Positions 6,997 to 58,335 of a stretch of 64,000 bases of DNA are shown here, piece by piece. Location of the stretch: NCBI RefSeq assembly GCF_020149935.1, contig NZ_CP083757.1, positions 992,001 through 1,056,000 of the forward strand, given 5' to 3'. The notes under the pieces were generated by a model that did not search any database, was not told where the DNA came from, and saw only the letters and a program-made list of their open reading frames with translations. This DNA is from Marinilongibacter aquaticus (GTDB taxonomy: Bacteria; Bacteroidota; Bacteroidia; Cytophagales; Spirosomataceae). Within the stretch, counting starts at the first letter, position 1, and the number at the start of each line of letters is the position of its first letter. Made by a program: the position numbers and the translations under genes.

Positions 6997-7052
6997 AAAA
7001 AAACATTATACCCTTTTCTGGAAAGACGCTGGAGAAAACTGCCGCAATTTAT

Positions 7053-7700: not shown

Positions 7701-7744
7701 TTTACAATTCAATTTCTTTCGCACGCGAAGAAAAACGGTTTCAG

Positions 7745-7760: not shown

Positions 7761-7854
7761 GTAGATTTTGCTCTTTTCAATGCATGAAAAATAACGACAG
7801 TAAAACACTATAAATCAACGGATTAAAAATAAAATAAATTTCCCCTTTTTCTGC

Positions 7855-7870
7855 TGACACACCTTTGTCA
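7855..7870. promoter_or_regulatory. Operator-like inverted repeat TGACA-N6-TGTCA (copy 2)
   Basis: TGACA at 7855-7859 and TGTCA at 7866-7870, the same half-sites and spacer as copy 1, located 47 bp before the DinB start codon. A CAATTTTG (7882-7889), one base off the TAnnTTTG -7 consensus, lies just downstream, so binding here would overlap or abut a promoter. Confidence 0.6.
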
Positions 7871-7917
7871 CTTGGTGTATGCAATTTTGAAATCGAAAAC
7901 AAAAACACTCAAAAACA

Positions 7918-25973: not shown

Positions 25974-25974
25974 A

Positions 25975-26550
25975 TCAATAGGCCAAAACCCCGGCCACCG
26001 CATGTACGCGGCTTTGGAAAATGGGTACCTGACGCACATAAAAGTGATATTGCCTGATCAGCTCCCTTTCGCTGCCTTCGGCCATATACTTTTTGAGAAT
26101 TTTCTTGGCTTTCGCACGCTTTTCGGCAAAAGCCAAAGCCCAAGCCTTGTGCATCTCAAACTTTTTGAAAAAGCAATCGTTCATCGCATAATCCGAATCT
26201 GAACGTTGCATACCGTAGTTCTTTCGTACCGAACGTAAGCCCGTATTGAACATGTCCAAAGCTTCGGTGAATTTTCCATTTTGCAGATGCCATTGACCCA
26301 ACTTCAACAATAGGGACAAATGGTGTTTGTACAGCGGAAAATTGTAATGCTTTTCAAGAGCCTTTTTGCTTTCAATGAGTTGTTTCAGCAAATGCTCCGA
26401 TCCTTGCTCGGGCCGAAAAGCAAAAAGCATGTCGCTCTGGCAAGCCCCCGAACTGAACATTCTCCTTGTTTGGGCAGGGCTTTCCGAACTCAGCACAAAA
26501 ATGAGCAAGCCTATCCACAGCAATCGCAATGTCAAGTTCTTGAAATACAT
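25975..26550 (-). CDS. Small exported TPR-like protein (unknown family, small copy 1)
   Basis: A 191-residue protein I cannot assign. A hydrophobic N-terminus (LTLRLLWIGLLIFVLSSESPA) predicts export. The rest is helical. KLGQWHLQNGKFTEALDMF looks like a tetratricopeptide-type helix pair, and KAWALAFAEKRAKAKKIL begins the next. The same module, with an invariant Trp in the second element, recurs in the small protein at 31061 and at the C-termini of both 755-residue proteins (see findings). It is the last gene of the small-large-large-small run, 28 bp after the large gene upstream. The two cysteines in SSGACQSDM and NDCFFKK are also placed alike in the other small protein. Confidence 0.7.
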   Translation of the reverse strand: MYFKNLTLRLLWIGLLIFVLSSESPAQTRRMFSSGACQSDMLFAFRPEQGSEHLLKQLIESKKALEKHYNFPLYKHHLSLLLKLGQWHLQNGKFTEALDMFNTGLRSVRKNYGMQRSDSDYAMNDCFFKKFEMHKAWALAFAEKRAKAKKILKKYMAEGSERELIRQYHFYVRQVPIFQSRVHAVAGVLAY

Positions 26551-26578
26551 CTTATATTATTCTTACAAAATCCCAATT

Positions 26579-28846
26579 TTAGGGGTTGGAATCAAAGACA
26601 TCGGCAATGCTTAAAATACGCTGTCGAAAACTTGTGTTCTTCAAAATTTGCTGATAACTGTTCAATACAAAGCTTCTCATTCCATTCGGTCTGTTGAGCA
26701 ATTTTCCCAGGGCCTTTCGGGCCTCTTCCTCTTTTCCCTGCAAAAGCCAAACCCATACGCGGTCCATTTCCACAAAGGTTTGTAGCCCACCCGTCACTTC
26801 AAAGTCACTCTTCATGCCATAGGACTTTTTCAGCTCACCTTCGAGTTGTTCCAGCATTAAGTCGGCCGTATCGAAATCGAAATTGTCGCGGTGCAAAATG
26901 GCCAATTTGTGCACAGCCATCAAATATTCCTCGCGGTCATTGGGGTCTCCTGTCAAGGCCTGTTTGGTTTTCAATTCAGCGGCATATTTGGTGTAACGTA
27001 AAATATCCATCTCCAAATTACCGCTTGAACCCGGTTGATTTTTGCCGTTTTGATCTTCCTCTTCCAGCCACGCCAAGGTTGCCAGCAACACACTCGACCT
27101 GTCTTTTATCCGCCTCAAATCCGAAAAACTGTATTCTTTTCGCAAGTCCAATACACGTTCCGCATTTTCAAAAACCAATCTTTCTTTCGTAGTGTATCTC
27201 AAAAAATACTTGGCATAATCAATGGTAAAATCCATCAACACTTCATAATTGTACACCGTGCGATTCTCCAGATAGGCTGTAAAGAATTTTTCCATCCACA
27301 TATGCCAACGCGAAAATGCCAAGCCCTGACCGCCAATTTGGTACACTTCATCCGCAATTATCCCCAAAACTTTACCGGGGCTTACTTCCTTTGGAAGCTG
27401 CTGACGCAAAGTGGCCGCCTCCGAGAAATTGTCTAAGTAATATTGCAATACATTCTGCAAATGCAAGTTGGCTTCTTTCTGGTTTCGGTTGGCATACGCA
27501 TAAAAGCCAAGCTGCCAATCGCTTACCACAAGCATCTTATCGTAGTTGGGGATATACGACCGATACAAAGGGTTTAGGCCTTTCAACAATACGTTCATTT
27601 GGGAAGTGAGCGGAATCAAATTCTCGGGATCGTAGGCAATATCCATTTTACTTTGGTCATTATACATTTGAATGGCATTCACAATCAAACGGGAATCAAA
27701 ATACATCTTGTTCTCATTAATTATCCCTATCAGTTCCTTTAGTGCTTTGTGCTCACCAATCGCATTGCGGTTGTGCATATTCGACCACATAAGCCCTAGA
27801 TAATGTACCTTTAGCTTTTCTGCCGAAACAGGTGCACTTTGCCCATATTCGAGCAAAGCCTTTTCCACATTCTCCCAAGATTTAGAATCTCTCAGACCCG
27901 AATTGTGCCCAAAAGCTCGCAAGCCCGCTACAAGCACTTTCTTTTGCAAATAGTACTGGCGATTCAGGCCCGCACCCTCATGCAAAAGGCTTTCCATTTT
28001 ATTCAATACCTTTTCTCGCAAAGCCAGTTTGGCCTTCGCACTGAATAGATTCAAATATTCTTGAGCCTTTTGGAGTCGATTGAAGTATTCCAAATCGAAT
28101 ACCTTGTGGGTGTTCGCCTCTTTCAGAAGAGCCTTGCAAACCGCAAAGGACATTTCTTCGGCTTGTATTTGCAGAACAGGCAATTTTAAAGGCTCTGTTT
28201 CCAAAATCTGTTTCAGTTCTGCCCAAAAAGTACTGTCCTCTTTGCTTTGCTTGACCTCCGCGGCAGCCCATTCTTTTTCAATTCCGTTTAACCCCTCGCC
28301 CGCTTGGCCAGAAGCGATTTCATTGTACAGTGCAAAGGCCGTTCCACTGAGTTTCCCTGCTTGCGTACCGCCCAAAGTATATGCTGCCGACATCTTCCCA
28401 AAGAACTGTTGTGGATTCAAATCCATTCTTGTAAGCCTCTGGATAAAGGCTCTCTCAAAAGCCACTCCTTGTGAAAAATAGGCGATCTCGCTTTCCAAGT
28501 ACACTTTCAAGGTGTCGCCTGCTTGCCATTCCACAAACAGACAATCAAAATCGGGCAAAATCCACCCTTCCTTTTCAAAATTCAAAGATGGAGCCAACAA
28601 GGGAGCATCGGGCCGAAATCGAAATTCAACCACACCGTTTTCGTCGGAAACCTGAGCTTCCAACCCGTAATCTGAACTGATCTTGACTCCCGAAACGGGG
28701 CGGCCGTCGAAGAAACCGAGAGTTTGCACAATACTTGTCTGCTGCGAATGACCGGGCAGGCTCAGCATACAGCACAATCCGAACCAAAGCAGAAAACTAT
28801 TTAAACAAGTAAAGAATTTCTCGAATGTCGTTTTGGTATTTTTCAT
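26579..28846 (-). CDS. Large exported protein, 755 aa (unknown family, large copy 1)
   Basis: No known family recognised. A signal peptide (about 1-35, h-region LNSFLLWFGLCCMLSL, then GHSQ) is followed by a short beta-rich domain of about 60 residues (FFDGRPVSGVKISSDYGLEA to FEKEGWILP) that resembles carboxypeptidase-regulatory/CNA-B-like sandwiches. About 550 residues of helical sequence follow, ending in the TPR-like module with RVWVWLLQGKEEEARKAL. The beta domain is almost identical to that of the upstream paralogue; the middle is not. The ATG at 28846 lies 50 bases inside the 3' end of that paralogue, but no later start keeps the signal peptide. Length equals that of the paralogue exactly. 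Confidence 0.72.
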   Translation of the reverse strand: MKNTKTTFEKFFTCLNSFLLWFGLCCMLSLPGHSQQTSIVQTLGFFDGRPVSGVKISSDYGLEAQVSDENGVVEFRFRPDAPLLAPSLNFEKEGWILPDFDCLFVEWQAGDTLKVYLESEIAYFSQGVAFERAFIQRLTRMDLNPQQFFGKMSAAYTLGGTQAGKLSGTAFALYNEIASGQAGEGLNGIEKEWAAAEVKQSKEDSTFWAELKQILETEPLKLPVLQIQAEEMSFAVCKALLKEANTHKVFDLEYFNRLQKAQEYLNLFSAKAKLALREKVLNKMESLLHEGAGLNRQYYLQKKVLVAGLRAFGHNSGLRDSKSWENVEKALLEYGQSAPVSAEKLKVHYLGLMWSNMHNRNAIGEHKALKELIGIINENKMYFDSRLIVNAIQMYNDQSKMDIAYDPENLIPLTSQMNVLLKGLNPLYRSYIPNYDKMLVVSDWQLGFYAYANRNQKEANLHLQNVLQYYLDNFSEAATLRQQLPKEVSPGKVLGIIADEVYQIGGQGLAFSRWHMWMEKFFTAYLENRTVYNYEVLMDFTIDYAKYFLRYTTKERLVFENAERVLDLRKEYSFSDLRRIKDRSSVLLATLAWLEEEDQNGKNQPGSSGNLEMDILRYTKYAAELKTKQALTGDPNDREEYLMAVHKLAILHRDNFDFDTADLMLEQLEGELKKSYGMKSDFEVTGGLQTFVEMDRVWVWLLQGKEEEARKALGKLLNRPNGMRSFVLNSYQQILKNTSFRQRILSIADVFDSNP
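28553..28720 (-). repeat. 168-bp near-identical repeat, copy in large gene 1
   Basis: Matches 30792-30959 at an offset of 2239 bases with three differences in 168 (about 98% identity). Two differences are silent (Ser TCT/TCC, Leu TTG/TTA); one changes Gly to Asp before FFDGRP. It encodes the N-terminal beta domain. Identity falls off sharply on both sides. Confidence 0.9.
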
Positions 28847-31064
28847 TCTTCATGAAAAGTTGTGCTCTCGTGATAATATAATTTCTGTATTCGCCCGTGC
28901 TATCCAAAGTTAAATAACGCCGAATAATTGCTTCACATTGCGACTTTTCCCCTTGAAAAAGCAGAATCCAAGCCTTCAGAATTTCCACCTGTGCCAAAAG
29001 TTTGTTGCTCACCACAAGCCAATCGTTTCGGGCCATCGATTTACGCTGTATAAATTCAATGGCCTCTTCGGCCACAGCCTCGGCGGCAGTGAAATTTTCA
29101 CTTTGAAAATACAAAGAAGAAAGTTCGATCAAATCAATTGCATAGCTTTTCGCATAGAAATCATCTTTATTGTTCTGCTCGATCAATTTCTTCCGCTCGT
29201 TGACGACCTGTATTTGAGTATGCAGCTGATCCGTCCAATTGCTTGCCGAATCGCGTTGGGTTAAAAGTGCCTTCAAACCACTTGATCGGAAGTGGCTGTA
29301 AAAGGCCTGTGAAACAGTCAAAAATTCCTTTTCCTTGTATTGCGGAATCTTAATATTTCCCGGGCGATTCTTCAACAATTGCATCACTTCATCAACGAGA
29401 GTACGGCCTTCATTACTGAAATTCCCGCTTTCCATGAAGTGAATGTAGTCGGAAGTGCTTTCGAGAAGGGCAGTCAGTTGTTTGCCGTTTGGCACCAAAT
29501 CGTACCTCTTTTGCTCGAGATAAAGCAGTAAGCGATACAATTCTCCCACAGGGTCAAACTCGTTGAGATTCAAACCCGAATTGATAAGTCTTTTCAAATT
29601 CCACGCCTCGCGATTGTAGAAATTTTCATCTTCCAAAGGAATACCGTCTTCTAACTTCTCCAATTGCTTAAAACGAGCACTTATGTGATAAAAAGCTTCC
29701 TTGAACTTTTGGGGTTGGGAGGCATAATACCAAGCCAACTGCCTATCCATAAAAATGGAGTTGAGATGGGCCGAGGTATCGGCTTGCTCCACCAAACGTA
29801 CCCCCTCCTCCATCAAAGACGTAAAGCAAGAATCGTTCTCTCGATTAAGGCTATAGGAAATGGGCACAAGTAACCCCATAAAGCGTACAATTGATTCATT
29901 GTCAGGCTCCTTACCCATTTCAACTCTAATTTGACCTAACTCATCACAAACTTCCTTGTAGCGTCCATATTTGCAAAGTGCAGAAAAACGATCGCGTTTA
30001 ATTTTTCGCTTTATGCGAATTGCAGCCTCTGGAAAGTAATTGAAATATTCGTCGGCCAATGCATCCCTATACTCCAAAAATGGGAACGTGCTCTCCTCAT
30101 GAAAATACACATTGGCAGAATGAGCAAATTGAGAAATATCCAATTTCATTTTAAGAAAAAACATGCGATTCAAACCCGGAAAGGCCTCCAGACGATTTTG
30201 TGCAATTTCCATTTTTTTCTCAGTTTCCAAGGAGATCACTCCATTTGAAACAGAATAGAATTCTTTCATCAATGATTCAAAATCAAGGTCCTTTTCTTCT
30301 TTGGGAAGCTCCGTTTTGATTTGCCCTTTCTTGAAATCGAAGAGGTTAATAAAATGTAGCGATTCGGGAAATACAAAAAAATTGCTTGTCCCTTCAATTG
30401 CTCTACGCAACTTATCCTTTTCCAAAATCAAATCGGAAAGCAGAGCGATAGTGGCCTTTTCGACCAAATCTTGACCAGTCTCAAACCGTTTCTCAATCTG
30501 CGTCTTCTCGCTCAGTTCTCTTATTTTCTGCCGAATTTCTTCCAGTTCAAATGCCTGCTCAAAAGCCCTCGCAATATCTTGTAAATCCGTGCTGAATTTC
30601 AGTCTTGAGATACTCCCCATGGCCACAAACAATTTCCAAGCACGGAATTCATTGCTTTGCGGCAATCCAGCCCTATAGCGATCAAACATCTTTTGATACG
30701 TCGTAATGCCCCTTTCATAATCTTTTCTCTCACAGATGTAAATCCGTAGAGTGTCCATTTCTTTAATTGTACGAAACAGGTCTTCCGGACTGGGCAAAAT
30801 CCACCCTTCCTTTTCAAAATTCAAGGATGGAGCCAATAAGGGAGCATCGGGCCGAAATCGAAATTCAACCACACCGTTTTCGTCGGAAACCTGAGCTTCC
30901 AACCCGTAATCTGAACTGATCTTGACTCCCGAAACGGGGCGGCCGTCGAAGAAATCGAGGACTTGCACTTTCGATATTTCTTGTGCAGCGGCATCATTCG
31001 ACAAGCCTAAGAAAACAAAACAAAGAATAAGTGCGTAAACTAGCGTTCTTGGCATAACGGTCAT
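28797..31064 (-). CDS. Large exported protein, 755 aa (unknown family, large copy 2)
   Basis: Paralogue of the gene downstream, also 755 residues and unassigned. The signal peptide (TLVYALILCFVFLGLSNDAAAQ) is followed by the same beta domain (about 32-95), then about 550 helical residues rich in Glu/Lys/Leu, and the closing module with KAWILLFQGEKSQCEAII and NYIITRAQLFMKNEKYQNDI. The middle region has little visible similarity to large copy 1. No catalytic motif, CxxC or metal site is evident. Its ATG overlaps the stop of the upstream small gene by four bases (31061-31064), implying translational coupling. Its own 3' end overlaps the next gene by 50 bases. Confidence 0.72.
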   Translation of the reverse strand: MTVMPRTLVYALILCFVFLGLSNDAAAQEISKVQVLDFFDGRPVSGVKISSDYGLEAQVSDENGVVEFRFRPDAPLLAPSLNFEKEGWILPSPEDLFRTIKEMDTLRIYICERKDYERGITTYQKMFDRYRAGLPQSNEFRAWKLFVAMGSISRLKFSTDLQDIARAFEQAFELEEIRQKIRELSEKTQIEKRFETGQDLVEKATIALLSDLILEKDKLRRAIEGTSNFFVFPESLHFINLFDFKKGQIKTELPKEEKDLDFESLMKEFYSVSNGVISLETEKKMEIAQNRLEAFPGLNRMFFLKMKLDISQFAHSANVYFHEESTFPFLEYRDALADEYFNYFPEAAIRIKRKIKRDRFSALCKYGRYKEVCDELGQIRVEMGKEPDNESIVRFMGLLVPISYSLNRENDSCFTSLMEEGVRLVEQADTSAHLNSIFMDRQLAWYYASQPQKFKEAFYHISARFKQLEKLEDGIPLEDENFYNREAWNLKRLINSGLNLNEFDPVGELYRLLLYLEQKRYDLVPNGKQLTALLESTSDYIHFMESGNFSNEGRTLVDEVMQLLKNRPGNIKIPQYKEKEFLTVSQAFYSHFRSSGLKALLTQRDSASNWTDQLHTQIQVVNERKKLIEQNNKDDFYAKSYAIDLIELSSLYFQSENFTAAEAVAEEAIEFIQRKSMARNDWLVVSNKLLAQVEILKAWILLFQGEKSQCEAIIRRYLTLDSTGEYRNYIITRAQLFMKNEKYQNDIREILYLFK
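30792..30959 (-). repeat. 168-bp near-identical repeat, copy in large gene 2
   Basis: Partner of 28553-28720; same orientation, 2239 bp apart, three mismatches. As a direct repeat it could support gene conversion, or deletion that fuses the two large genes into one. Confidence 0.9.
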
Positions 31065-31648
31065 TCAAAAAGCTTTTCGAAGCGAACCAGGCGATCGGCA
31101 TAGGCATGATCATATTGCATGAAAAATTGATACTGCTCGATGATGTCGGCTTGATATCCTTCTTTCAAAAATCGTATAAATGTACGCTTCGCTTTGTTTT
31201 CTTCTCCATTCGCCAATTGAACCCACGCCCGATTTAACAGAAACTTAACCACAAAGCAATTGTTCATGGCCTCATCGGAAAACCCTCGACCGATTTTATA
31301 ATTCTTTCGAATATCCTTCAAACCTGATTTCAATACGGTTTGGGCGTCTTCAAACTGACCAACATGCATATACCATTGCCCCAATTCGAGCAATTTTTCC
31401 AAATAGGTTTCAAATTCCTTTCTGTTGTACTTGTCGGTATAGAAATCTTTGAACATTGCAATCTCGGAAATCAAAGCCTGTGAATCGAAGTTCAGTGCAT
31501 GCACATAGAGTAGGTTTTCGGTAAAGCAGCTCGACTTTGCCGCGTATTGTGTTTTAATAGTGAGATGCATGTGCTGTCCGTATGCCCGCTGTGCGAATAC
31601 GGTGCACAGGAATAGACAAAATAGGGTTTTTATAGGCATGGTTTTCAA
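31061..31648 (-). CDS. Small exported TPR-like protein (unknown family, small copy 2)
   Basis: A 195-residue protein, first gene of the small-large-large-small run. A signal peptide (IKTLFCLFLCTVFAQRAYG) precedes a helical body. KLLELGQWYMHVGQFEDAQT and RAWVQLANGEENKAKRTF align with the small protein at 25975 without gaps, and the spacing to DIIEQYQFFMQYDHAYADRL is kept. The protein is otherwise unassigned. Coupled to large copy 2 by a 4-base overlap. Either Met1 (31648) or Met4 could start it. The promoter should lie in 31649-31680, just after the sulfatase terminator. Confidence 0.7.
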   Translation of the reverse strand: MKTMPIKTLFCLFLCTVFAQRAYGQHMHLTIKTQYAAKSSCFTENLLYVHALNFDSQALISEIAMFKDFYTDKYNRKEFETYLEKLLELGQWYMHVGQFEDAQTVLKSGLKDIRKNYKIGRGFSDEAMNNCFVVKFLLNRAWVQLANGEENKAKRTFIRFLKEGYQADIIEQYQFFMQYDHAYADRLVRFEKLFE

Positions 31649-31686
31649 TCTGTGCCGCTAAATAAGCTAAATTCAAGCGATAAAAA

Positions 31687-31709
31687 AAGGCGTGCCTAAG
31701 GCACGCCTT
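31687..31709 (-). terminator. Terminator after the sulfatase operon
   Basis: Arms AAGGCGTGCC (31687-31696) and GGCACGCCTT (31700-31709) with a 3-base loop; on the minus strand the stem is followed by TTTTTATCG. It separates the SusCD-sulfatase operon from the small-large-large-small run. Confidence 0.9.
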
Positions 31710-31735
31710 CCCTTTTTCGAATGATCGGAGGCAAT

Positions 31736-33127
31736 CTATTTCCCCTCCACCAAAACCAATTGATTCGGCACTTCTTCTACTGTAGCCAAATGCTCTTCGG
31801 CTAGTTTTTTCAGTTGGCTCACGATTTCCGGATAATCATCTGCGACATTGTATTTTTCGGAAGGGTCCGTCATCACATTAAACAACGTAGGTTTTTCCAA
31901 CACTTCGATTTTTGCGGGATATCCCAAGGGATTGTTCGACAGAAAATACAGTTTATACGCTCCTTTTCTCACTGCAAAAAGCTTGGTGGCATGATAGTAA
32001 AACATCACATCACGCGGCGTTTTATCTTCACCACGCATAACCGGCGATATGTCGAAGCCATCCAATACACGATCTTTGGGTGCATCGATACCCGCCAAAC
32101 TGCAGATGGTTGGCAGAATATCCAATGTGCTGCCCATTTTCGACACAATTCCCGGTTTCACATCTTTTCCCCAAATTACGCAGGGCACACGCTGCCCGCC
32201 TTCATAACTGGTGCCTTTTCCGCCATAAAGCAAACCCGCAGATCCACCGTTTTCACCAAAAACCAGCCATGGGCCATTGTCTGTCGTGAAAATCACATAG
32301 GTGTTGTCTTCCAGTCCCTCAGCTCGGAGTGTTTCGAATATCTGTCCCACACTCCAATCAATTTCTTCGACCACATCTCCGTACAAACCGCGATCGCTGG
32401 TTCCGGCAAATTTCTTGTTATTGAAAAGAGGAATGTGTGGCATATTGTGGGCCATATACAAGAAAAAAGGCTTGTCTTTATGTTCTTTAATGAATTTAAC
32501 CGACTCTTCGGTATAGCGTTGCGTAAGCGTATTTTGATTGGCTGGCCTTTCGATTTCCGTTTCGTTTCTTAGAATCGGCACATTGAAACCGTGGTAATCG
32601 GGATTGGTCTTCTGGAATCGCTGATAAGCATATTCGGGATTGCGGTCCATGTCGTTGGAATACGGAATCCCGAAATAATAATCGAAACCATTGGATGTAG
32701 GCAAGAACTGTGGCAAATGCCCCAAATGCCATTTTCCCACACAGGCTGTGCTGTAATTTTCGGTTTTCAACATTTCGGCAATCGTCAATTCTTTGGGCTG
32801 AATCCCCCCTTTCGAATCGGGAAACAATACGCGGCGACGTTCATGCTCCATTCCGCCGCGTACCGGTAAACGGCCCGTCATCAAACCAAAACGCGAAGGC
32901 GTACACACATTGGAAGCCACATAGAAATTAGTCCACTTTTGACCTTCGAAAGCCATGCGGTCGATATTCGGAGTTTTAATAGTAGGATGCCCAAAACAGC
33001 TGAGATCGCCATAACCTTGATCATCTGTAAATATTACAATGAAGTTGGGTTTCTGCTGCTTTTGAGCGTAGGTATTTCCAACATTAAGGCCAATGAAAGC
33101 CAATAAAATCCATTTCAAATTCTTCAT
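31736..33127 (-). CDS. Exported sulfatase (family S1)
   Basis: A 463-residue S1 formylglycine sulfatase. It removes sulfate esters, probably from a glycan. The maturation motif is CTPSRFGLMTGR, whose Cys must be converted to formylglycine; metal ligands are seen in FTDDQGYGDL and TTDNGPW. GKWHLG contributes a conserved Lys/His pair. The ATG at 33127 (MKNLKWILLAFIGLNVGNTY) gives a signal peptide and a 4-bp gap to the previous gene; an ATG at 33160 would overlap it. Last gene of the SusCD operon. The substrate position is not predictable by eye. Confidence 0.9.
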   Translation of the reverse strand: MKNLKWILLAFIGLNVGNTYAQKQQKPNFIVIFTDDQGYGDLSCFGHPTIKTPNIDRMAFEGQKWTNFYVASNVCTPSRFGLMTGRLPVRGGMEHERRRVLFPDSKGGIQPKELTIAEMLKTENYSTACVGKWHLGHLPQFLPTSNGFDYYFGIPYSNDMDRNPEYAYQRFQKTNPDYHGFNVPILRNETEIERPANQNTLTQRYTEESVKFIKEHKDKPFFLYMAHNMPHIPLFNNKKFAGTSDRGLYGDVVEEIDWSVGQIFETLRAEGLEDNTYVIFTTDNGPWLVFGENGGSAGLLYGGKGTSYEGGQRVPCVIWGKDVKPGIVSKMGSTLDILPTICSLAGIDAPKDRVLDGFDISPVMRGEDKTPRDVMFYYHATKLFAVRKGAYKLYFLSNNPLGYPAKIEVLEKPTLFNVMTDPSEKYNVADDYPEIVSQLKKLAEEHLATVEEVPNQLVLVEGK

Positions 33128-33131
33128 AATT

Positions 33132-34472
33132 TCAGGGTTTTTGCCAAGGTGTTCGACCACCTTGCTGAATAAATGTCATCATTAATTTATTTAATTCCAT
33201 CAATTTTTTAGGCTCTTGTTCGGCCAAATTGACTTTCTCGTAGGGGTCGGTTTGCAAACGATACAGTTCCAAGGGAGAATACGGCGTGTTTTGCAGGATT
33301 TTCCAACCTTGATAAATCATGGCGTGGTAATCGTTTCCGCCGTATTTCATTCCGCCTTCTCGCCGAACAAAATAGATCGGTCTTTCGCTCATCTTTGCCT
33401 TTTCATTCAGTAAAATCGACTTAAAGCTTTTTCCGTCGCAATCGGTTAAAGTTTCGCCTTGAACCAAATCGGCCAAAGTGGGCAACACATCCATGGTCAT
33501 CAGTTTTTCATCAGAAACTATACCGGCTTTGATTCTCGCAGGCCAAAGAGCAAAAGCCGGTACACGGATACCGCCTTCGTACATACTTTGTTTCCCGTCG
33601 CGATAGGGCAAATTGTTCGCCAAGTCCTCCAAATTCCCGCCATTATCGCTCATGAATAAAATCAACGTATTTTCATATTGTCCAGTGGCTTTCAATGCGT
33701 CCACCACACGTCCAAGACTGTAATCCAAATGCTCGATCAAAGCCACCAATTTGGCCCGTTTCGGATCAATCCCCTTTTCTCTTGTCAAGACCTTTTGCAG
33801 CCATTCTTCCGGCGGTTGAACAGGAAAATGAGGAGCATTGTAAGCCAAATACAAGAAAAAGGGTTTGGCTTGGCCTTTGGCCTTTTCGATATAATCAATG
33901 GACCAGTCTGTGAAAATATCCGTGGCATGGCCTTCGGGGTCCACCACCTTTTCATTTTCACGCATGAAATTGATGCCGTGCCTTCTGTGGCCGTAGTAAT
34001 CTTCCATCATATCCTCCAACCAGCCGTGGAAATAATCGAAACCCTTTTGATTGGGCAAATTGGGAGATTCCAGACCCAAATTCCATTTCCCGACCATGGC
34101 CGTGGCATAGCCCGCATTTTTCAGCACCGCAGGCATCAATGTGGCCTCGGGTTTTAAATAACCCCAATTGTTGGCTTTGGGATAGCGAATCAAACCCGGT
34201 ACACCGACAGCATCGGGATGCTGACCCGACATCAAAGCCGCCCGAGTGGGAGAACATACGGGAGAATTGGCATAAAACCCATCGAAACGGATTCCTGCTC
34301 CACACAGGGCATCGATATGAGGCGTTTGTACATCTTCGGTATTGTAGTACGACACATCATTGTATCCCAGATCGTCAACCAAAACGAGTAAAACATTGGG
34401 CTTTGTGGACTGAGCCCACAAAGCCTGATTGAAGATTAAAATGTAGGTAAATAAGAAAAAAAATCTACGCAT
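33132..34472 (-). CDS. Exported sulfatase (family S1)
   Basis: A 446-residue S1 sulfatase, only distantly similar to the next one, so the pair probably attacks different sulfate positions. The signal peptide MRRFFFLFTYILIFNQALWA precedes VLVDDLGYNDVSYYN (metal Asp pair), the maturation motif CSPTRAALMSGQHP, GKWNLG and MSDNGGN (metal Asp/Asn). The gene begins 1 bp after the SusD stop, so the operon order SusC-SusD-sulfatase-sulfatase is tightly packed. The maturase for formylglycine is not in the window. Confidence 0.9.
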   Translation of the reverse strand: MRRFFFLFTYILIFNQALWAQSTKPNVLLVLVDDLGYNDVSYYNTEDVQTPHIDALCGAGIRFDGFYANSPVCSPTRAALMSGQHPDAVGVPGLIRYPKANNWGYLKPEATLMPAVLKNAGYATAMVGKWNLGLESPNLPNQKGFDYFHGWLEDMMEDYYGHRRHGINFMRENEKVVDPEGHATDIFTDWSIDYIEKAKGQAKPFFLYLAYNAPHFPVQPPEEWLQKVLTREKGIDPKRAKLVALIEHLDYSLGRVVDALKATGQYENTLILFMSDNGGNLEDLANNLPYRDGKQSMYEGGIRVPAFALWPARIKAGIVSDEKLMTMDVLPTLADLVQGETLTDCDGKSFKSILLNEKAKMSERPIYFVRREGGMKYGGNDYHAMIYQGWKILQNTPYSPLELYRLQTDPYEKVNLAEQEPKKLMELNKLMMTFIQQGGRTPWQKP

Positions 34473-34473
34473 C

Positions 34474-36021
34474 TCACCAATTGGGGTTTTGAGCCAATCC
34501 CGGGTTTAATGAAATCTCACTCGCCGGAATGGGCAGTAAATCGTAATATTCTAAATAGCCGTTGGGAAAGCGTGTTTCGATGACTCCACCTTGATGATCC
34601 TTGATTTCCAGTGGATAAATCTCATTGCCTAAATCCCAACGTTTTATGTCAGACCAATATAATCCTTCAAGAGCAAACTCTACCCGGCGTTCGTGTCTAA
34701 GTTTTTCGCGGGCCTCTGTTTGAGATAAACCCATCGACAATTCGCTGATTTTCACATCTTCTCTTTCTGTACGAATCCTGTTGATCAAGGCAATGGCTTC
34801 GGGGATATCCTGATTCAACTCGATCAAAGCTTCGGCTTTGGCCAAGAGTACATCCGCATAACGCACCACAATATCGTTTATGGCCGATTGACCCGAAGGC
34901 GGCAGTTTATCGAAATCGGCCTCGCGATACTTTCTGCAACTCAAATGTTTCAACTGATTGCCCGGGTGATTGTACGCTCCTCCGGGATATATGTAGTTCG
35001 GGAATTGATAACCCAAAATAAACGAACCGGGCAAAACAACCGTAAACGCCAAACGCGGATCCCTATTCTCGTACGGATTTTCAGGATCGACGGGCGAACC
35101 GTCGATTGTCTCGTAGGTGGCCACAAGGTCGTCTGTTGGCACATAACGCGTACCGCGTGTAAAACTTCCCGTTCCCGTACCGCAATATTGATCGTGAAAT
35201 GAACCTTGCGAGTTTTCACCTCTGATGTACTGAACATCGAAAATCACTTCGGCATTGTTTTCATTCTCCTCCTTGAAAAGACCTTCGTAGCTTGAGAAAA
35301 GCGAATATTTGCCCAAGGCTTCAATCTGCTCGGCCACTTCCAGCACCTTGTCGAATTTGTTTTGATACAGGTAAGCCCGCATTTTCAAAGCCAATGCTGC
35401 TCCTTTATTTGCACGGCCCTCTTCGGGGGCATCGGTCGCTAAATTGGCAATAGCCACATCATAATCGGCAATCGCCTGATCCCAGGTTTCGGCAAGTGAA
35501 GCTCTGACCAAATTCTTGGCTTCGTCGGTAGAAATCGCCGACTTTATAATGGGTACACCGCCATAACTGTCGGCCAACAAAGAATAAGCCAAACCCCTTA
35601 GAAAATGAGCTTCTCCCTCATAAATCTTGCGTTTTTCTTGAGCCAAATCCACTTCATCCAAAATCTGTAAAACATAATTGGCCCTGAAAATAATGGCATA
35701 GCAGCGGGTCCAGCGGAAGGTCACAATTTCTGCATCTGAAGACGACAGTTGTCCGTTTCCAATTTTGGCAATCGCCGTATTTCCCCAATTGAAGGCATTC
35801 GGTGTGGCTCCGTCCAGTACGCCAAAGCCAAACAAACCCTGATTGTAAATGGAGGTTTCTTTCAAAAGCGAATACACGCCATTCAAGGCAAACTTGATGT
35901 CGTTCTCGTTTTCGGGGAAATTGGCCGAAGTGATTTTATCTTCCGGAAATACATCGAGGTACTTATCACTGCAACTCAAACAAAGCAAAACAAAAAGTAT
36001 ATAAATAGATCTAAATCTCAT
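34474..36021 (-). CDS. susD: SusD/RagB-family glycan-binding lipoprotein
   Basis: A 515-residue SusD-like surface lipoprotein that captures a glycan and lids its SusC partner. The lipobox is LLCLSC (Cys17), followed by the family opening DKYLDVFPEDKITSANFPEN. The TPR-like helices (VYSLLKE, then EGEAHFLRGLAYSLLADSYG) and the C-terminal RHERRVEFALEGLYWSDIKR segment are typical. It follows SusC by four bases. As is normal for the family, the ligand cannot be read from sequence; the two downstream sulfatases suggest a sulfated polysaccharide. Confidence 0.94.
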   Translation of the reverse strand: MRFRSIYILFVLLCLSCSDKYLDVFPEDKITSANFPENENDIKFALNGVYSLLKETSIYNQGLFGFGVLDGATPNAFNWGNTAIAKIGNGQLSSSDAEIVTFRWTRCYAIIFRANYVLQILDEVDLAQEKRKIYEGEAHFLRGLAYSLLADSYGGVPIIKSAISTDEAKNLVRASLAETWDQAIADYDVAIANLATDAPEEGRANKGAALALKMRAYLYQNKFDKVLEVAEQIEALGKYSLFSSYEGLFKEENENNAEVIFDVQYIRGENSQGSFHDQYCGTGTGSFTRGTRYVPTDDLVATYETIDGSPVDPENPYENRDPRLAFTVVLPGSFILGYQFPNYIYPGGAYNHPGNQLKHLSCRKYREADFDKLPPSGQSAINDIVVRYADVLLAKAEALIELNQDIPEAIALINRIRTEREDVKISELSMGLSQTEAREKLRHERRVEFALEGLYWSDIKRWDLGNEIYPLEIKDHQGGVIETRFPNGYLEYYDLLPIPASEISLNPGLAQNPNW

Positions 36022-36025
36022 GGTT

Positions 36026-39000
36026 CTAAAAGTTTAGGTTCACACCGAGTGAAAGGATTCTGGGCACTGGATACACATTTACACTGGAATCGAATGTGGT
36101 CTTCTCGGGATCATACCCGTTGTAAGATTTATTGGCCATCGTCAACACATTTTGAGCATTGACATACAAATAAGCCTTCCGCAGACCGTATTTGGTGATC
36201 CAGTTTTCGGGTAAAGTATAACCCAATTGAGCATTTTTAATCTTCAAGAAACTGCCGTTCACAATCCAGAAATCAGAATCTTGGTTGTCCCAAGAATTGT
36301 CGAAACGAGCCATTGGTATATTCGAATCCTTATTTTCTGGTGTCCAAGCATCCAACCAGCTTGTGGCAATCACGCGGTTTTCAAAGGAAAGGTTGGTGAA
36401 ATTGTTTCTGTTGAAAAGGTTTACACCCGCTACGCCTTGAAGCAACAGATTGAGGTCAAACCCCCTGTATTTAAACGAAGGCGAAACACCGAAGGTCAGT
36501 TTCGGAATTGTATTGCCCAAAGATTGCTTGTCTTGATAATCCAAACGCCCATCGTTGTTGAGGTCCTGAAATCTCAAATTACCCGCTTTGGGTACAAAAC
36601 CGTTGGCATACATATGCTCTTGGGCTTCTTCGTCAGACTGGTAAATGCCTTCTACTTTGTAGCCGTAAAGCTCTTTGTAGGAATAGCCTTCCCGAATCAA
36701 AAACAATTGATCGGGCGAGCGTTCCGTACCGAAATCGGTGACCTTGTTGTTGATGTAGGTCATGTTCACACCCAAATTGAAATTCAATTGCTCGGCTCTG
36801 TATTTTTGACCGTAATAATTGAAAATAAGCTCGAAACCGTCGTTTTGCATCGCTCCCTTGTTTTCGACTGGAGCGGCCAAGCCACCGAGCACCAAAGGAA
36901 TAGGCAATTGCACCAAAATATCCGTGGTGTTTTTCCTGAAATAATCGGCTTCAATCGAGAACCTGTTGTTCAGCACCGCCAATTCCAAACCTATATCCAA
37001 AGTCGAGGTCTGCTCCCAACTGATGTTGTTGTCGATCAATGAAGTAATCGCGGCCCCAGCGGCAAATGTGCCTCCGTAATTGTAGCTCAAGCCATTGTTT
37101 TGGTCAATGATCGTCAAATACGGCGAGTAGCTGGAAATATTCTGATTGCCCAATTTCCCCCAAGAAGCCCTGAATTTCATGTTTGAAATGAAGTCGGACT
37201 GGGCGAGAAAAGGTTCTTCGGAAATTCGCCAACCCACCGAAAAGCCCGGAAAATAGCCCCAACGTTCACCACTTTTGAACCGCGACGAGCCGTCTGCACG
37301 AATGTTCGCTTCAAACAAATATTTCTCATCCAAAGCATAGTTCAATCGCCCAAAATAAGACACGATACGCAGTCGATTCATATTTCCTGTACCCTGAATT
37401 CCCGATGTGCCCGCGTCTACCTGAGTCAACCCTTCCTTTGGCGGTTTTGTACGGCGAGCATATACGGTTTGAATCTTGTTGTTCTCGTTCTGGAAACCGG
37501 CCAGCACTTTGAAATCATGCCGTCCGTTTATGTTTTTTGTATAATTCAGGGTGGAAAACAGATTCGTATTTACCGTAAAATTGGCACCCCTGTTCATTTC
37601 CAAACCTTCGCGGTTGTAGTTTTTGGTTGTCGTCTCAATGCCCGAATCCGTATATCCGTATACACTTGAATTGTATCGATCAACAAGACTCCAGGTACCG
37701 TTTAAAGCATAGGTGGTTTTGAAGACAAGGTCTTTGCTCAAGTAAATATTCGAAGTCACGTTGGCCGTCATCAAATTATCCTGACTAATTGTGCGGCCAT
37801 TGGCGGCATCAATCAGCGGATTACGGTTGTCGTAAAGCATCGCCCCACTTTCGTCGAACACTTCCACAGAACCGAAATCGCCGTTTCGCGTATACGGGGC
37901 GATATATGGCGTTGCTCCCGAAAGCATTTCAAAAACACGGCCCAAAGAGCCATAAGTCACATCGGAATACGGCTCTTTCGAATTGCGGTTGATGTAGCCC
38001 AATCGACCGCCAATATCAAACCACTTATTCACTTTGGTATTCACATTGGCCCGTAATCCGTAACGCTGCGAATTTGTATTCGACACCATTCCGTTTTGCT
38101 TCAAATAATTGAAGGAAAGAAAAGTTGAAGTCTGGGCCGATCCACCAGTAATAGAAATGTTATTTTGCTGGATCAGGGCATCCTGAAACAACACTTTGAA
38201 CCAATCCGTGTTGGGGTATTTGAAAGCATCGTCACTCGATTTATATTGATTGATCAGGTCTTGCGGAAAAATGGCACTCGAACCCGCGTTTACAAGAGCG
38301 GCATTGGTCAATTCCATACTTTCTACGCTGTTACTGATCGTATTGTAATGTCTGCCCAAGGACTGCACGCCTACATAGGAGTTGAAATTCACCCGCATTT
38401 TTTCGTTCCGCTCGCCTACTTTTGTGGTCACCAACACCACACCATTGGCTGCTTTCGAACCGTAAATGGCCGCACTGGCCGCATCTTTCAACACCGAAAT
38501 GGATTGGATATCCGAGGGGTTCAGTTGATCGAAACTGCCCTCTACCCCATCGACGATAATGAGCGGGTTGGAGTTGTTCAAAGTCCCCCATCCTCTTACG
38601 CGTATCTGGGCCCCATCGCTTCCGGGTTTACCCGAGTTTTGGCTCACCCACACACCCGAAGCCGTGCCTCCCAAGGCTTGAGAAGCGTTCGTTATCGGCC
38701 GATTTTCTACTTCTTCATCGAATTTTATGGTGGAGATTGCCCCCGTAAGGTTCACTTTTTGATTGCTGCCGTATCCCACCACAACGACCTCGCTGAGGCT
38801 GGTGGCGTCCGGTGCCAATTGTACAATGACCGTTTGTTCGTCTTTGCCCAATTCTACTTCTTTGCTCGAATAACCCACATAAGAGACCAAAAGAATAACC
38901 ACGCCTTCGGCCACTTCCATACGGAAATTGCCATCCATATCGGATTGCGTGGCGGTTTGGGTTCCTTTCACCACCACTGTGGCTCCGGGAATCCCCATAT

Positions 39001-39460
39001 TGTTTTCGTCTTTCACCTGCCCCGTGATTTCCCTCAGCACGTTTTCCGGTTCGGCATTTCGAAGCAAGGTTTCTTCCTTCCTTTTCTTCTTGGGTGTCTG
39101 GCTTTCCCGAATCAAAATCCGGTTTTCGGTAATGATGTACTTTAAATTGATGGGCGGCAATATCTCGTCGAGAAGGTTGTCGACACGTTTGTTTTTTACT
39201 TCGACAGAGACTTTTTGCCCAATATCCACACTGCTCGGACTGTAGACAAATCGCAGGTTGGTTTGCAATTCTATGGCTTTGAGTACCTCTTTCAATTCTT
39301 CGTTCTTTCGGTGGAGGGTCACTTTCCTTTTCAAATCGATCTGGCTGTAACCCGATATCGCAAAGGACAGGTTGCAAAAAATGTAGGACACAAGAAAAAA
39401 CGACAAAGAGGTTTTCATAATAAGCCTGAGATAATCGAGTCTTCGACTATTTTTTTTCAT
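36026..39460 (-). CDS. susC: SusC/RagA-family TonB-linked outer-membrane transporter with STN domain
   Basis: A 1144-residue SusC-like transporter. After an export signal (about 1-40) comes an STN domain (about 50-110, LKEVLKAIELQTNLRFVYSP) that contacts the FecR anti-sigma factor. A carboxypeptidase-regulatory domain follows (about 140-220), then the TonB plug (SEVVVVGYG through VLKDAASAAIYGSKAANGVV) and a long barrel. This marks it as a transducing receptor that reports substrate to the adjacent FecR/sigma pair. The ATG at 39460 (MKKNSRRLDYLRLI) is chosen over 39493. Two hairpins sit in the 132-bp gap to fecR. Confidence 0.94.
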   Translation of the reverse strand: MKKNSRRLDYLRLIMKTSLSFFLVSYIFCNLSFAISGYSQIDLKRKVTLHRKNEELKEVLKAIELQTNLRFVYSPSSVDIGQKVSVEVKNKRVDNLLDEILPPINLKYIITENRILIRESQTPKKKRKEETLLRNAEPENVLREITGQVKDENNMGIPGATVVVKGTQTATQSDMDGNFRMEVAEGVVILLVSYVGYSSKEVELGKDEQTVIVQLAPDATSLSEVVVVGYGSNQKVNLTGAISTIKFDEEVENRPITNASQALGGTASGVWVSQNSGKPGSDGAQIRVRGWGTLNNSNPLIIVDGVEGSFDQLNPSDIQSISVLKDAASAAIYGSKAANGVVLVTTKVGERNEKMRVNFNSYVGVQSLGRHYNTISNSVESMELTNAALVNAGSSAIFPQDLINQYKSSDDAFKYPNTDWFKVLFQDALIQQNNISITGGSAQTSTFLSFNYLKQNGMVSNTNSQRYGLRANVNTKVNKWFDIGGRLGYINRNSKEPYSDVTYGSLGRVFEMLSGATPYIAPYTRNGDFGSVEVFDESGAMLYDNRNPLIDAANGRTISQDNLMTANVTSNIYLSKDLVFKTTYALNGTWSLVDRYNSSVYGYTDSGIETTTKNYNREGLEMNRGANFTVNTNLFSTLNYTKNINGRHDFKVLAGFQNENNKIQTVYARRTKPPKEGLTQVDAGTSGIQGTGNMNRLRIVSYFGRLNYALDEKYLFEANIRADGSSRFKSGERWGYFPGFSVGWRISEEPFLAQSDFISNMKFRASWGKLGNQNISSYSPYLTIIDQNNGLSYNYGGTFAAGAAITSLIDNNISWEQTSTLDIGLELAVLNNRFSIEADYFRKNTTDILVQLPIPLVLGGLAAPVENKGAMQNDGFELIFNYYGQKYRAEQLNFNLGVNMTYINNKVTDFGTERSPDQLFLIREGYSYKELYGYKVEGIYQSDEEAQEHMYANGFVPKAGNLRFQDLNNDGRLDYQDKQSLGNTIPKLTFGVSPSFKYRGFDLNLLLQGVAGVNLFNRNNFTNLSFENRVIATSWLDAWTPENKDSNIPMARFDNSWDNQDSDFWIVNGSFLKIKNAQLGYTLPENWITKYGLRKAYLYVNAQNVLTMANKSYNGYDPEKTTFDSSVNVYPVPRILSLGVNLNF

Positions 39461-39502
39461 AACTTCGCAAGGTTTGATGGTTGTCAGAATCATTTAAACA
39501 TT

Positions 39503-39548
39503 CCCCGTGTTGCGGGGCAAAGTTGGAGATGTTGCCGCATCTCTAACT
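39503..39548. promoter_or_regulatory. Two hairpins between fecR and susC
   Basis: CCCCG-TGTTG-CGGGG (39503-39517) and AGTTGGAGATG (39521-39531) with CATCTCTAACT (39538-39548; 11 pairs, one mismatch, 6-base loop), the latter followed by TTTTTT on the plus strand. On the minus strand they lie between the fecR stop and the susC start and could attenuate read-through or form the susC leader. Confidence 0.5.
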
Positions 39549-39592
39549 TTTTTCGAAAAATAGGGTTTATTTCATATCGCCTCCTTTTTCTT

Positions 39593-40591
39593 TTAATTGC
39601 AATTGCTGCCTTTCACAATAATTTTCGCTCCCTTGATTTCGTAGTTCGAACCTGTGGCCGCACAAACCAAATTGAGCTTCTGATAAAGTGTCAGGTTGTT
39701 CAAATCGCCGGTGAACAAACAATCGCCAAATTCTTCGTTCAACAGAATGATTTCCACACCAAAGGCATTTTTAATGTCTTTCAATAGGGTTGATAATTTC
39801 TCTTCTTCGTACACGAAATGATTGGGTCCAAAGCCGTTGGGATGAATCAAAACAGGATTATCGATTAGGGTTTCGCGTAAACTTTTATCTTGGGCATCGT
39901 ATACGGCCCGTAGATTGGGTGTCAAAATCAACTCTGTGCCATTTTGCGTTTTCATACTCTGATCCATTGACACAGAAACCTTGCCCGAGTATACTTTCAC
40001 CTCGATTTCACTGTTGTCTTTGTTTTCGTTGATCGCAAAACTTGTACCCAAAACTTTGGTTAGCAAGTGTTCGGTTTGAATAATGAAAGGCTTTTCTTCG
40101 TTTCGTTTCACTTCGAAAAAGCCATTGCCCCGAAAGCGAACTTTACGGTCGGCCTCGTCGAAAGAATCGTGGATTTCAAGAGAAGAAATTCCCTTTAAAA
40201 TAACCGAGGTGCCATCGGGCAAAGTCACTTTTTTCACATCATCCGCCTTGAGCCCTTGTGCTACTGTTTTGAAGCCCACACTTTCCGATTCTTTGTGTAA
40301 AAAAGGCCATGCGGCCAAAGACAAAAACACAATTACGGAAGCCGCCAAAGCCCACATCTTCCGCCCGAATACTTTCTTGGGTCGCTCCGTGGAATAGCCT
40401 ATTTCTGCTCTCAATCTGTGCAGTACACTATCCTTGATTTCTTGGCGTTCGCCGTCGTGCTCAAAAAGCGAATCTGCACGCTTGATACGTAGATTTTCTT
40501 GGGCCAAAGCGATCAAAAAGGCCTGTTCTTCTTCGGTACATAAACCGGCCCTGTATTTATCAATGATATAATCTATTTCGTGCTCTTTCAT
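39593..40591 (-). CDS. fecR: FecR-family anti-sigma factor
   Basis: A 332-residue FecR-like transmembrane anti-sigma factor. The cytoplasmic N-terminus (1-75) should hold the ECF sigma factor; one transmembrane helix (about 79-100, MWALAASVIVFLSLAAWPFL) follows. The periplasmic FecR domain is at about 110-200 (VTLPDGTSVILKGISSLEI, GNGFFEVKRNEEKPFIIQTE). A C-terminal short secretin/TonB-type domain (DUF4974, about 245-330) pairs with the STN domain of SusC. It lies 9 bp after the sigma gene, giving a complete surface-signalling cascade. Confidence 0.93.
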   Translation of the reverse strand: MKEHEIDYIIDKYRAGLCTEEEQAFLIALAQENLRIKRADSLFEHDGERQEIKDSVLHRLRAEIGYSTERPKKVFGRKMWALAASVIVFLSLAAWPFLHKESESVGFKTVAQGLKADDVKKVTLPDGTSVILKGISSLEIHDSFDEADRKVRFRGNGFFEVKRNEEKPFIIQTEHLLTKVLGTSFAINENKDNSEIEVKVYSGKVSVSMDQSMKTQNGTELILTPNLRAVYDAQDKSLRETLIDNPVLIHPNGFGPNHFVYEEEKLSTLLKDIKNAFGVEIILLNEEFGDCLFTGDLNNLTLYQKLNLVCAATGSNYEIKGAKIIVKGSNCN

Positions 40592-40600
40592 GTTTGTTTC

Positions 40601-41158
40601 TTAGTTTGCTGAATGAAGTCCTTTGAAGGTATTTCGGATGATTTTCATGGACTTTGTGATGTGATATTCTATGGCCTTTTCTGAAAGGTCCATTTCCTTT
40701 GCGATTTCCCGAACAGGAAAATTCTCGATCTTACTCATCTTGAAAATCTGAGCGGTTTTCTCAGGCATTGAAGCCAATACCTTTTCGAGCTGTGCTTTGA
40801 ATTCAGCCTCCTCCAAATGGCGATCAATGGGCACAACCTCCTCGAGCCTACTCATGATCTGAAACTCGCGGTACTTGCGTTGATTGATTTCCCGCCGAAT
40901 GAATTTGTTGATTTGATTGCGTGCTGCGATGAAGAGATAAACACCCAGATTATTGATTTCAGCAGAAGATTTATTGCTCCAAAGACTGAGCATAATATCC
41001 TGCAATATTTCTTCACTTTCTTCCCGCGATTCCAGATTGCGGAAAATAAACGCGTAGAGTTTCTCCCAATACCGAAGATATATTGCCTCAAAGGCCGCTG
41101 TGCTGCCCTTTCGCAATAGCGAAGCCAATTCTACATCTTCCAGTTCATTAAGAGTCAT
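40601..41158 (-). CDS. ECF sigma-70 factor (Bacteroidota SusC-linked type)
   Basis: A 185-residue ECF sigma factor of the group paired with FecR in Bacteroidota. Region 2 is seen in EAIYLRYWEKLYAFIFRNLE and EESEEILQDIMLSLW; region 4 is KTAQIFKMSKIENFPVREIA followed by the DLSEKAIEYHITKSMKIIR helix-turn-helix. When the SusC receptor is engaged, FecR should release it to transcribe the SusCD operon. A candidate -7 box TATTTTTG lies at 41240-41247 on the minus strand, about 80 bp upstream of the ATG. Confidence 0.94.
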   Translation of the reverse strand: MTLNELEDVELASLLRKGSTAAFEAIYLRYWEKLYAFIFRNLESREESEEILQDIMLSLWSNKSSAEINNLGVYLFIAARNQINKFIRREINQRKYREFQIMSRLEEVVPIDRHLEEAEFKAQLEKVLASMPEKTAQIFKMSKIENFPVREIAKEMDLSEKAIEYHITKSMKIIRNTFKGLHSAN

Positions 41159-41239
41159 TTCAAGGGTTGGTCGTTTGCATCAAGGTACCTTTGGGGGCAG
41201 AAACCCCTAAACAAAATCCATATTTTTTATTAAATATTA

Positions 41240-41247
41240 CAAAAATA
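41240..41247 (-). promoter_or_regulatory. Candidate -7 box for the sigma/fecR genes
   Basis: TATTTTTG on the minus strand, a full match to TAnnTTTG, 82 bp before the sigma-factor ATG. No good TTG -33 box at normal spacing was found, so it is tentative. Confidence 0.35.
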
Positions 41248-41315
41248 GACAATAATCGGAACAGAAATCACCGATCAAACATCGCATAAAATATTAACCA
41301 TAAGTACATTACAAA

Positions 41316-41352
41316 AAAAAGGACTCTTTGAGTAAACCCAAGAGCCCTTTTT
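41316..41352 (-). terminator. Terminator of the haem lipoprotein gene
   Basis: AAAAAGGACTCTT (41316-41328) pairs with AAGAGCCCTTTTT (41340-41352), one mismatch, 11-base loop; the minus strand continues with T-rich sequence. It lies 17 bp after the stop at 41370. Confidence 0.75.
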
Positions 41353-41369
41353 CATGAAAACGCTAAAAT

Positions 41370-58334: not shown

Positions 58335-58335
58335 G

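What the first reader, a model, noticed from the sequence alone, without database searches (positions are those of the whole stretch)
25975..31648. Four-gene small-large-large-small run of unassigned exported proteins
Seen: four minus-strand genes of 195, 755, 755 and 191 residues, all with export signals, packed with a 4-base overlap, a 50-base overlap and a 28-bp gap, and set off by a terminator upstream. None matches a family I know, and no enzyme motif is visible. The mirrored order suggests duplication of a small-large pair followed by rearrangement. Inference: the products form a periplasmic or surface assembly, and the large proteins pair with the small ones. This is my best candidate for an undescribed system.
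Basis: partly seen in the sequence, partly recalled or inferred. Interest (0 to 1): 0.68.

Follow-up and report, generated by a model that had tools for sequence, protein, structure and literature searches.

The report
Orphan operon of exported TPR-like proteins
Four neighbouring genes in one bacterium make related, probably exported helical-repeat proteins that look like parts of one scaffold; the genes are real, but no relative was found in the genomes searched and their job is unknown.

Summary
The four minus-strand genes are real coding genes with the packing described. L1 and L2 also share 54 consecutive identical residues near the N-terminus (161 of 163 nt, both differences silent), while their ~490-residue middles show no significant pairwise similarity: recent gene conversion (or copying) between old paralogs. 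No relative was found: the L1+L2 profile, run on 222 family, 390 order, 395 class and 395 phylum genomes (overlapping samples), hit only the window's own genome plus weak or spurious places; the small proteins were searched less widely. The adjacent sulfatase PUL occurs in six family genomes without these genes, and a genus-mate lacks the whole 15.4-kb block of PUL plus four genes. Best reading: a lineage-specific exported TPR scaffold whose small subunits dock on large ones through matching modules. Shown: anatomy, kinship, mosaic, absence in the samples. Inferred: export, docking, function. No enzyme, defence, T9SS-cargo or CHAT match was found.

The parts
31061..31648 (-). S1: small exported (inferred) TPR-like protein, 195 aa from TTG (192 aa from ATG at 31639)
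   Evidence: ORF; sub-threshold TPR; all-helical AF2 model, best of five pLDDT 71.9, structural matches mostly TPR and similar helical repeats
28797..31064 (-). L1: large exported (inferred) protein: N-terminal Ig-like domain (inferred, weak), divergent middle, TPR-like C-terminal module
   Evidence: ORF; weak TPR in C-terminus; AF2 mean pLDDT 47.3, ten-residue blocks 53-88 over residues 601-755
26579..28846 (-). L2: paralog of L1; starts 50 nt inside L1
   Evidence: ORF; shares N-terminal tract and C-terminal module with L1
25975..26550 (-). S2: paralog of S1, 191 aa; its stop codon lies 1 nt from the purN stop
   Evidence: ORF; 46 of 156 aligned residues identical to S1; sub-threshold TPR; junction
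30792..30954 (-). near-identical 163-nt tract, L1 copy (encodes F38-P91)
   Evidence: 161 of 163 nt identical to the L2 copy, 2 silent differences
28553..28715 (-). near-identical 163-nt tract, L2 copy
28800..29267 (-). stretch of L1 that holds the C-terminal module shared with S1, S2 and L2
   Evidence: hhalign A1 against A2, probability 94.5%, E 8e-8; pairwise z 7.2 to 11; TPR_8 E 3e-4, below cut-off
26582..27079 (-). stretch of L2 that holds the C-terminal module
   Evidence: pairwise z 9.4 to 11
31687..31709 (.). terminator-like hairpin with T-runs on both strands between the upstream sulfatase gene and S1
25974..41369 (.). 15.4-kb block (four-gene run plus sigma-FecR-SusC-SusD-sulfatase-sulfatase PUL) absent between purN and the DUF7133 gene in genus-mate G002

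Best explanation
The run is a lineage-specific operon of four exported, related helical-repeat (TPR-like) proteins that most likely form one periplasmic or cell-surface scaffold. S1 and S2 are stand-alone copies of the module that ends L1 and L2. I propose that small and large proteins dock through these matching modules, that the N-terminal domain kept identical in both large proteins binds one common partner, and that the divergent middles give L1 and L2 different clients. Shown: four coding genes in operon-like packing, kinship of the modules, a near-identical N-terminal tract flanked by diverged sequence, and absence in the genomes sampled. Inferred: one transcript, export, gene conversion as the cause of the tract, S-L docking, a shared partner and the client-binding role.
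For: Packing, hairpin and coding signal. The C-terminal module is homologous among all four: hhalign E 8e-8 and, in the five comparisons that involve a large C-terminus, z 7.2-11 with 0 of 200 shuffles reaching the score. TPR: sub-threshold Pfam TPR hits in all four, and the structural matches of the S1 model are mostly TPR or similar helical-repeat domains, Z up to 11.0. The N-terminal tract is 161 of 163 nt identical with 2 silent changes, against 143 of 598 residues identical downstream in a forced global alignment. S1 and S2 each carry just two cysteines in the mature part (38 and 128; 37 and 126), compatible with a disulfide in an exported protein (inference). Precedent for docking through TPR domains on both partners of one operon: RcbA/RcbB of Vibrio vulnificus (PMC12282931, abstract and passages read).
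Against: All Pfam TPR hits are below the curated cut-offs, L2 barely hits at all. Only one of the five S1 models is fair (71.9; the others 48.0-56.6), no Foldseek match of it reached E 0.001 (best 0.15), and Z 11 is below the tool's caution level of about 13 for helical repeats. The L1 model is poor (mean pLDDT 47.3), so the middle is not established as a solenoid. The Ig-like reading is weak: hhalign probability 4.5%, 1 of 30 column-shuffled controls scored higher, no CarboxypepD_reg hit at E<=5 (a DUF4198 hit at E 0.2 is all). Of the two cysteines of S1 and S2 only the second align exactly; the first are one column apart. No interaction could be tested (single-chain prediction only). With no relative, no conservation supports a joint function. 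No lipobox was seen by eye, so a surface anchor is unsupported.
Confidence: 0.42

Rival explanations
1. The four genes are accessory parts of the adjacent sulfatase PUL (handling a sulfated glycan) that arrived with it as one island.
For: Same strand, directly downstream of the sulfatase genes; genus-mate G002 lacks PUL and four-gene run together, with purN next to the DUF7133 gene.
Against: The PUL core (sigma, FecR, SusC, SusD, two sulfatases) is present in 6 of the 8 loci fetched around the closest SusD relatives, and in 0 of 8 does any ORF of 80 aa or more have S or L as its best blastp hit at E<=1e-3, nor is there a comparable run. A terminator-like hairpin separates the two. No carbohydrate-binding or enzyme domain reached a cut-off.
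Confidence: 0.2
2. An orphan cluster of fast-evolving paralogs without a collective function: products of local duplication, perhaps left from a horizontally acquired segment.
For: No homolog confirmed in any sample searched; no profile hit in either genus-mate; it sits in a segment that is an indel relative to G002.
Against: All four frames are intact with codon use like the flanking genes; the N-terminal tract differs only at silent sites (just 2 differences, too few for a test); no hit in viral contigs, phages, plasmids or PHROGs (the first with the L profile, the next two with L1 only); GC 0.40-0.45 against 0.40-0.50 around it.
Confidence: 0.25
3. A polymorphic or conflict-type system: constant ends around a variable middle as the effector or recognition part, with the small proteins as cognate partners or immunity proteins.
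For: Constant N-terminal tract and shared C-module around dissimilar middles; small partner genes adjacent; restricted distribution.
Against: No toxin, nuclease, defence or phage family beyond chance-level hits: NCBIfam SidP in S1 at E 0.023 with 12.7 bits against a cut-off of 890, PADLOC REase_II in L2 at E 0.023, PHROGs none. In polymorphic toxins as I recall them (PMC3482391 seen only as a listing with the start of its abstract) the variable part is C-terminal; here it is internal. Only two large copies were found in the genome.
Confidence: 0.07

Closest known systems
Tetratricopeptide repeat (TPR) superfamily (Pfam TPR_8, TPR_14, TPR_6 and others)
   Same: Weak TPR signatures in S1, S2 and the C-termini of L1 and L2; structural matches of the S1 model mostly TPR domains
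   Different: All sequence matches below curated cut-offs; no TPR hit in the middles of L1 and L2; no known relatives
Exported-looking TPR-CHAT proteins of the same order (tandem 969-aa pair in G037, locus L023)
   Same: Tandem large paralogs with signal-peptide-like N-termini and TPR repeats; touched weakly by the L1+L2 profile (E 3.4e-4)
   Different: They carry strong TPR arrays and a CHAT domain (E 7e-64 and 5e-64); L1 and L2 have no CHAT hit
RcbA/RcbB operon of Vibrio vulnificus (PMC12282931)
   Same: Products of neighbouring genes interact through TPR domains on both partners
   Different: Not exported as far as the passages show, and RcbB has a GGDEF enzyme domain; a 'works like' comparison only, no membership claimed
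N-terminal CarboxypepD_reg-like (Ig-fold) domains of TonB-dependent receptors and SusC proteins
   Same: In-register G-x-P-V-x-G-V ... D-x-N-G motif; weak hits of L1 and of the L profile to such N-termini in G013 and G122 (the receptor labels are mine from the sequence, no Pfam run on them)
   Different: No Pfam match, weak by hhalign; no plug or barrel hit in L1 or L2

Membership tests
TPR superfamily | Pfam TPR score above the curated cut-off | tested here: not met
   Best is TPR_8 in the L1 C-terminus, E 3e-4, 21.2 bits against cut-off 25.7; the rest are also below their cut-offs
TPR superfamily | TPR helical-hairpin fold | tested here: inconclusive
   Best of five S1 models pLDDT 71.9 (others 48.0-56.6); structural matches mostly TPRs, top Z 11.0, rmsd 3.1, 110 residues aligned, below the caution level for helical repeats; Foldseek best E 0.15
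TPR-CHAT proteins | CHAT domain | tested here: not met
   No CHAT hit at E<=1 in any of the four
Type IX secretion cargo | C-terminal sorting domain | tested here: not met
   NCBIfam scan at E<=1 gave no sorting-domain model in any of the four; that the library holds such models is recalled
Adjacent sulfatase PUL | Genes kept with the PUL in relatives | tested here: not met
   0 of 8 fetched SusD-relative loci hold an ORF whose best hit is S or L; 6 of the 8 have the PUL core. 101 of 222 genomes had some SusD match at E<=1e-50; I fetched the 8 with the closest
CarboxypepD_reg-like domains | Pfam match in the L1/L2 N-terminus | tested here: not met
   No CarboxypepD_reg hit at E<=5 for either isolated domain
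CarboxypepD_reg-like domains | Ig fold | tested here: inconclusive
   hhalign probability 4.5% with 1 of 30 shuffled controls higher; AF2 model of this region below pLDDT 50
Anti-phage defence or phage genes | PADLOC or PHROG match | tested here: not met
   PADLOC: one chance-level hit, REase_II at E 0.023 in L2; PHROGs: none at E<=0.1
Sec-exported proteins | Signal peptide | not testable with these tools
   Signal-peptide-like N-termini read by eye in all four; no predictor available

The most novel reading that the evidence does not exclude
A constant-variable-constant exported scaffold: recombination keeps the N-terminal docking domain of two tandem proteins identical, a C-terminal TPR clasp is shared with two stand-alone small subunits, and the middles are free to diverge or be replaced, giving paired complexes with one partner and different targets. 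Because the two tracts lie in the same codon phase of their genes, recombination between them would delete 2,239 bp and leave one in-frame chimeric large gene (S1-L-S2), so the locus could switch between a two-scaffold and a one-scaffold state.
Probability: 0.15. Interest if true: 0.55.

Novelty: new variant of a known kind. Interest (0 to 1): 0.3.

Why it matters
If the reading holds, this is an exported TPR assembly built from one module used both as a free subunit and as the end of a large protein, with a recombination tract that keeps one domain constant while the rest diverges. That would be a compact natural case for studying how scaffold paralogs keep a shared partner and split their clients. 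If it is only an orphan cluster, it is one more example of lineage-specific, exported-looking genes beside a PUL, and matters little.

Tried and rejected
PUL membership: the PUL core is present in relatives without these genes. Mobile or phage origin: no hits in viral contigs (L profile), phages and plasmids (L1 only) or PHROGs; no search aimed at insertion sequences or integrases was made. More copies in the own genome: the C-module profile found the four known places plus one at E 0.0018 in a 119-aa frame that overlaps a longer minus-strand ORF, which I judged spurious; four further hits at E 0.022-0.43 in the genus-mates G001 and G002 were not inspected. Weak hits inspected: G013 and G122 look like SusC or TonB-receptor N-termini (label from the sequence), G037 is a TPR-CHAT protein, the G031 hit lies in the frame of a 411-aa peptidase-like protein (label recalled). 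The hits in G140, G151 and G606, all with stops inside, were set aside unread. Further copies of the module in the L middles: none clear (S1 or S2 against the middles z -0.8 to 2.1; the L2 middle against L2 C-terminus value of 3.9 comes from a 10-residue overlap of the two segments as I cut them). Two sliding windows of the L1 middle against the L2 middle reached z 2.1 (10 and 13 of 300 shuffles), so distant homology of the middles is not excluded. Similarity just after the tract is marginal (24 of 1000 shuffles reach it) and before it absent (119 of 1000). Sequence searches of solved structures gave none for the small profile and one chance hit (E 0.99) for the large one. The Foldseek list for the L1 model (12 matches at E<=0.001, helical-repeat proteins, TM-scores 0.11-0.17 by query) is not used as evidence because the model is poor. 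Paper searches (0, 9, 17, 3, 2 and 279 papers, of which 0, 9, 10, 3, 2 and 12 were listed) showed no title on such an operon; I read only PMC12282931 (abstract and 12 passages), so I claim no more about print than that.

Limits of the search: the wide genome searches used the large-protein profile only, and scored at most 4 or 2 candidates a genome; S1 was searched in 59 genomes, S2 alone in none, the S1+S2 profile only by peptide patterns in genome contigs, the four-row C-module in 3 genomes.
Full report
Four minus-strand ORFs lie at 31061-31648 (S1), 28797-31064 (L1), 26579-28846 (L2) and 25975-26550 (S2), with overlaps of 4 and 50 nt and a 28-nt gap. S1 is listed from a TTG; an in-frame ATG nine bases later gives 192 residues and seems the likelier start. 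A hairpin followed by T-runs on both strands lies at 31687-31709 between the upstream sulfatase gene and S1. The four frames score best of six by codon usage trained on 16 window genes. L2 has no other start that would leave a plausible signal peptide (read by eye), so the 50-nt overlap is probably real.

What they are. Pfam gives only sub-threshold TPR hits: in S1, S2 and L1 (best E 0.0023, 0.0029 and 0.0076) and a weaker one in L2 (0.085); the isolated L1 C-terminus reaches TPR_8 at E 3e-4, still below cut-off. The profile of L1+L2 aligns to the profile of S1+S2 over 105 columns with probability 94.5% and E 8e-8. Pairwise shuffles agree: S1-S2 z 34, and the L C-termini against each other and against S1 and S2 z 7.2 to 11, with 0 of 200 shuffles reaching the score in each of these six comparisons. 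AlphaFold2 gives S1 as an all-helical protein (best of five models pLDDT 71.9, the other four 48.0 to 56.6), and the structures closest to it are mostly TPR domains, with some other helical repeats and designs among them (Foldseek best E 0.15 and none at 0.001; VIA-align Z up to 11.0). The tool warns that helical repeats under about Z 13 may share only a common arrangement, so the fold is likely but not proven. The L1 model is poor (mean pLDDT 47.3); ten-residue blocks over residues 601-755 range from 53 to 88.

The mosaic. L1 and L2 share a 163-nt tract with 161 identical positions, both differences silent (30792-30954 and 28553-28715), encoding 54 consecutive identical residues. Similarity falls off sharply on both sides: after the tract 143 of 598 aligned residues are identical in a forced global alignment, and local comparison of the middles alone gives z 0.5; sliding windows gave z between -0.3 and 2.1. 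Recent gene conversion between old paralogs is the simplest account; recent copying of a segment is the alternative. The region resembles Ig-like CarboxypepD_reg domains in motif, but the tests are weak.

Distribution. As single queries L1, L2 and S1 matched 2, 1 and 2 of 59 relatives, own genome included, at E<=0.001. The L1+L2 profile matched 1 of 3 genus genomes (own), 5 of 222 family genomes at E<=0.01 (own plus four weak hits), and at E<=0.001 2 of 390 order genomes, 2 of 395 class genomes and 2 of 395 phylum genomes, own included each time. The samples overlap and must not be added, and only 2 to 4 candidates a genome were scored. The hits outside the own genome that I inspected look like SusC or TonB-receptor N-termini, a TPR-CHAT protein and a peptidase-like frame; three with internal stops were set aside. 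Pattern-based scans of the 84,980-species collection with the large and the small profile matched 101 and 87 stretches, none confirmed; that method would miss distant relatives. Viral contigs, phages and plasmids gave nothing. The small proteins were searched less widely than the large ones.

Surroundings. Upstream lies a PUL: sigma factor, FecR, SusC, SusD and two sulfatases. Its closest SusD relatives (53-78% identity) lie in eight family genomes, out of 101 of 222 with some SusD match at E<=1e-50, and I fetched 15.7 to 19.9 kb around each of the eight. Six have the order sigma-FecR-SusC-SusD-sulfatase-sulfatase (in G024 the sigma and FecR genes are only 23-25% identical); G005 has a rearranged version with a split SusD, and G107 has no adjacent sulfatase. 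In none of the eight does an ORF have S or L as its best blastp hit at E<=1e-3, and none shows a similar run in its place. In genus-mate G002 purN is followed directly by the DUF7133 gene, so the whole 25974-41369 block is missing there; in G001 purN is followed by a different gene. Whether the block was gained here or lost there is not decided.

Mechanism. I commit to an exported scaffold in which S and L dock through homologous TPR-like modules, the N-terminal domain binds one common partner, and the middles differ in client (confidence 0.42). Docking between TPR domains on both partners of one operon has a precedent in RcbA/RcbB of Vibrio vulnificus (PMC12282931; abstract and 12 passages read), which is otherwise unlike this. 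S1 and S2 each have two cysteines in the mature part; the second pair align exactly, the first are one column apart, so a conserved disulfide is possible, not shown. Export, docking, client binding and the conversion mechanism are inference.

Verdict. Interest is moderate to low (0.3).

Noticed in passing
L061 (G005) 6698-8355: The SusD relative is split into two frames, and the PUL genes are rearranged relative to the other genomes.
   Followed up: no
L023 (G037) 1226-7064: Two tandem 969-aa exported-looking TPR-CHAT paralogs.
   Followed up: partly
window 54615-61014: Metal-handling neighbourhood: a heavy-metal P-type ATPase (label from the sequence, recalled), a TonB receptor, a protein with an AraC-type HTH and a sub-threshold HMA hit, and a Cys-rich small protein without a Pfam hit.
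   Followed up: no
window 41370-44756: Large protein with DUF7133, HEAT repeats and a cytochrome c domain, 72% identical in genus-mate G002.
   Followed up: no
window 25971-25996: S2 and purN converge with their stop codons 1 nt apart; a weak terminator-like site of the minus strand (25981-25996) falls inside the last codons of S2, at chance frequency for the stretch, whereas in G002 a hairpin with T-run lies between purN and the DUF7133 gene.
   Followed up: partly
L059 (G084) 9757-9999: An 80-aa exported-looking ORF overlaps the last sulfatase gene by 4 nt in this genome; no blastp hit to window ORFs at E<=1e-3.
   Followed up: no
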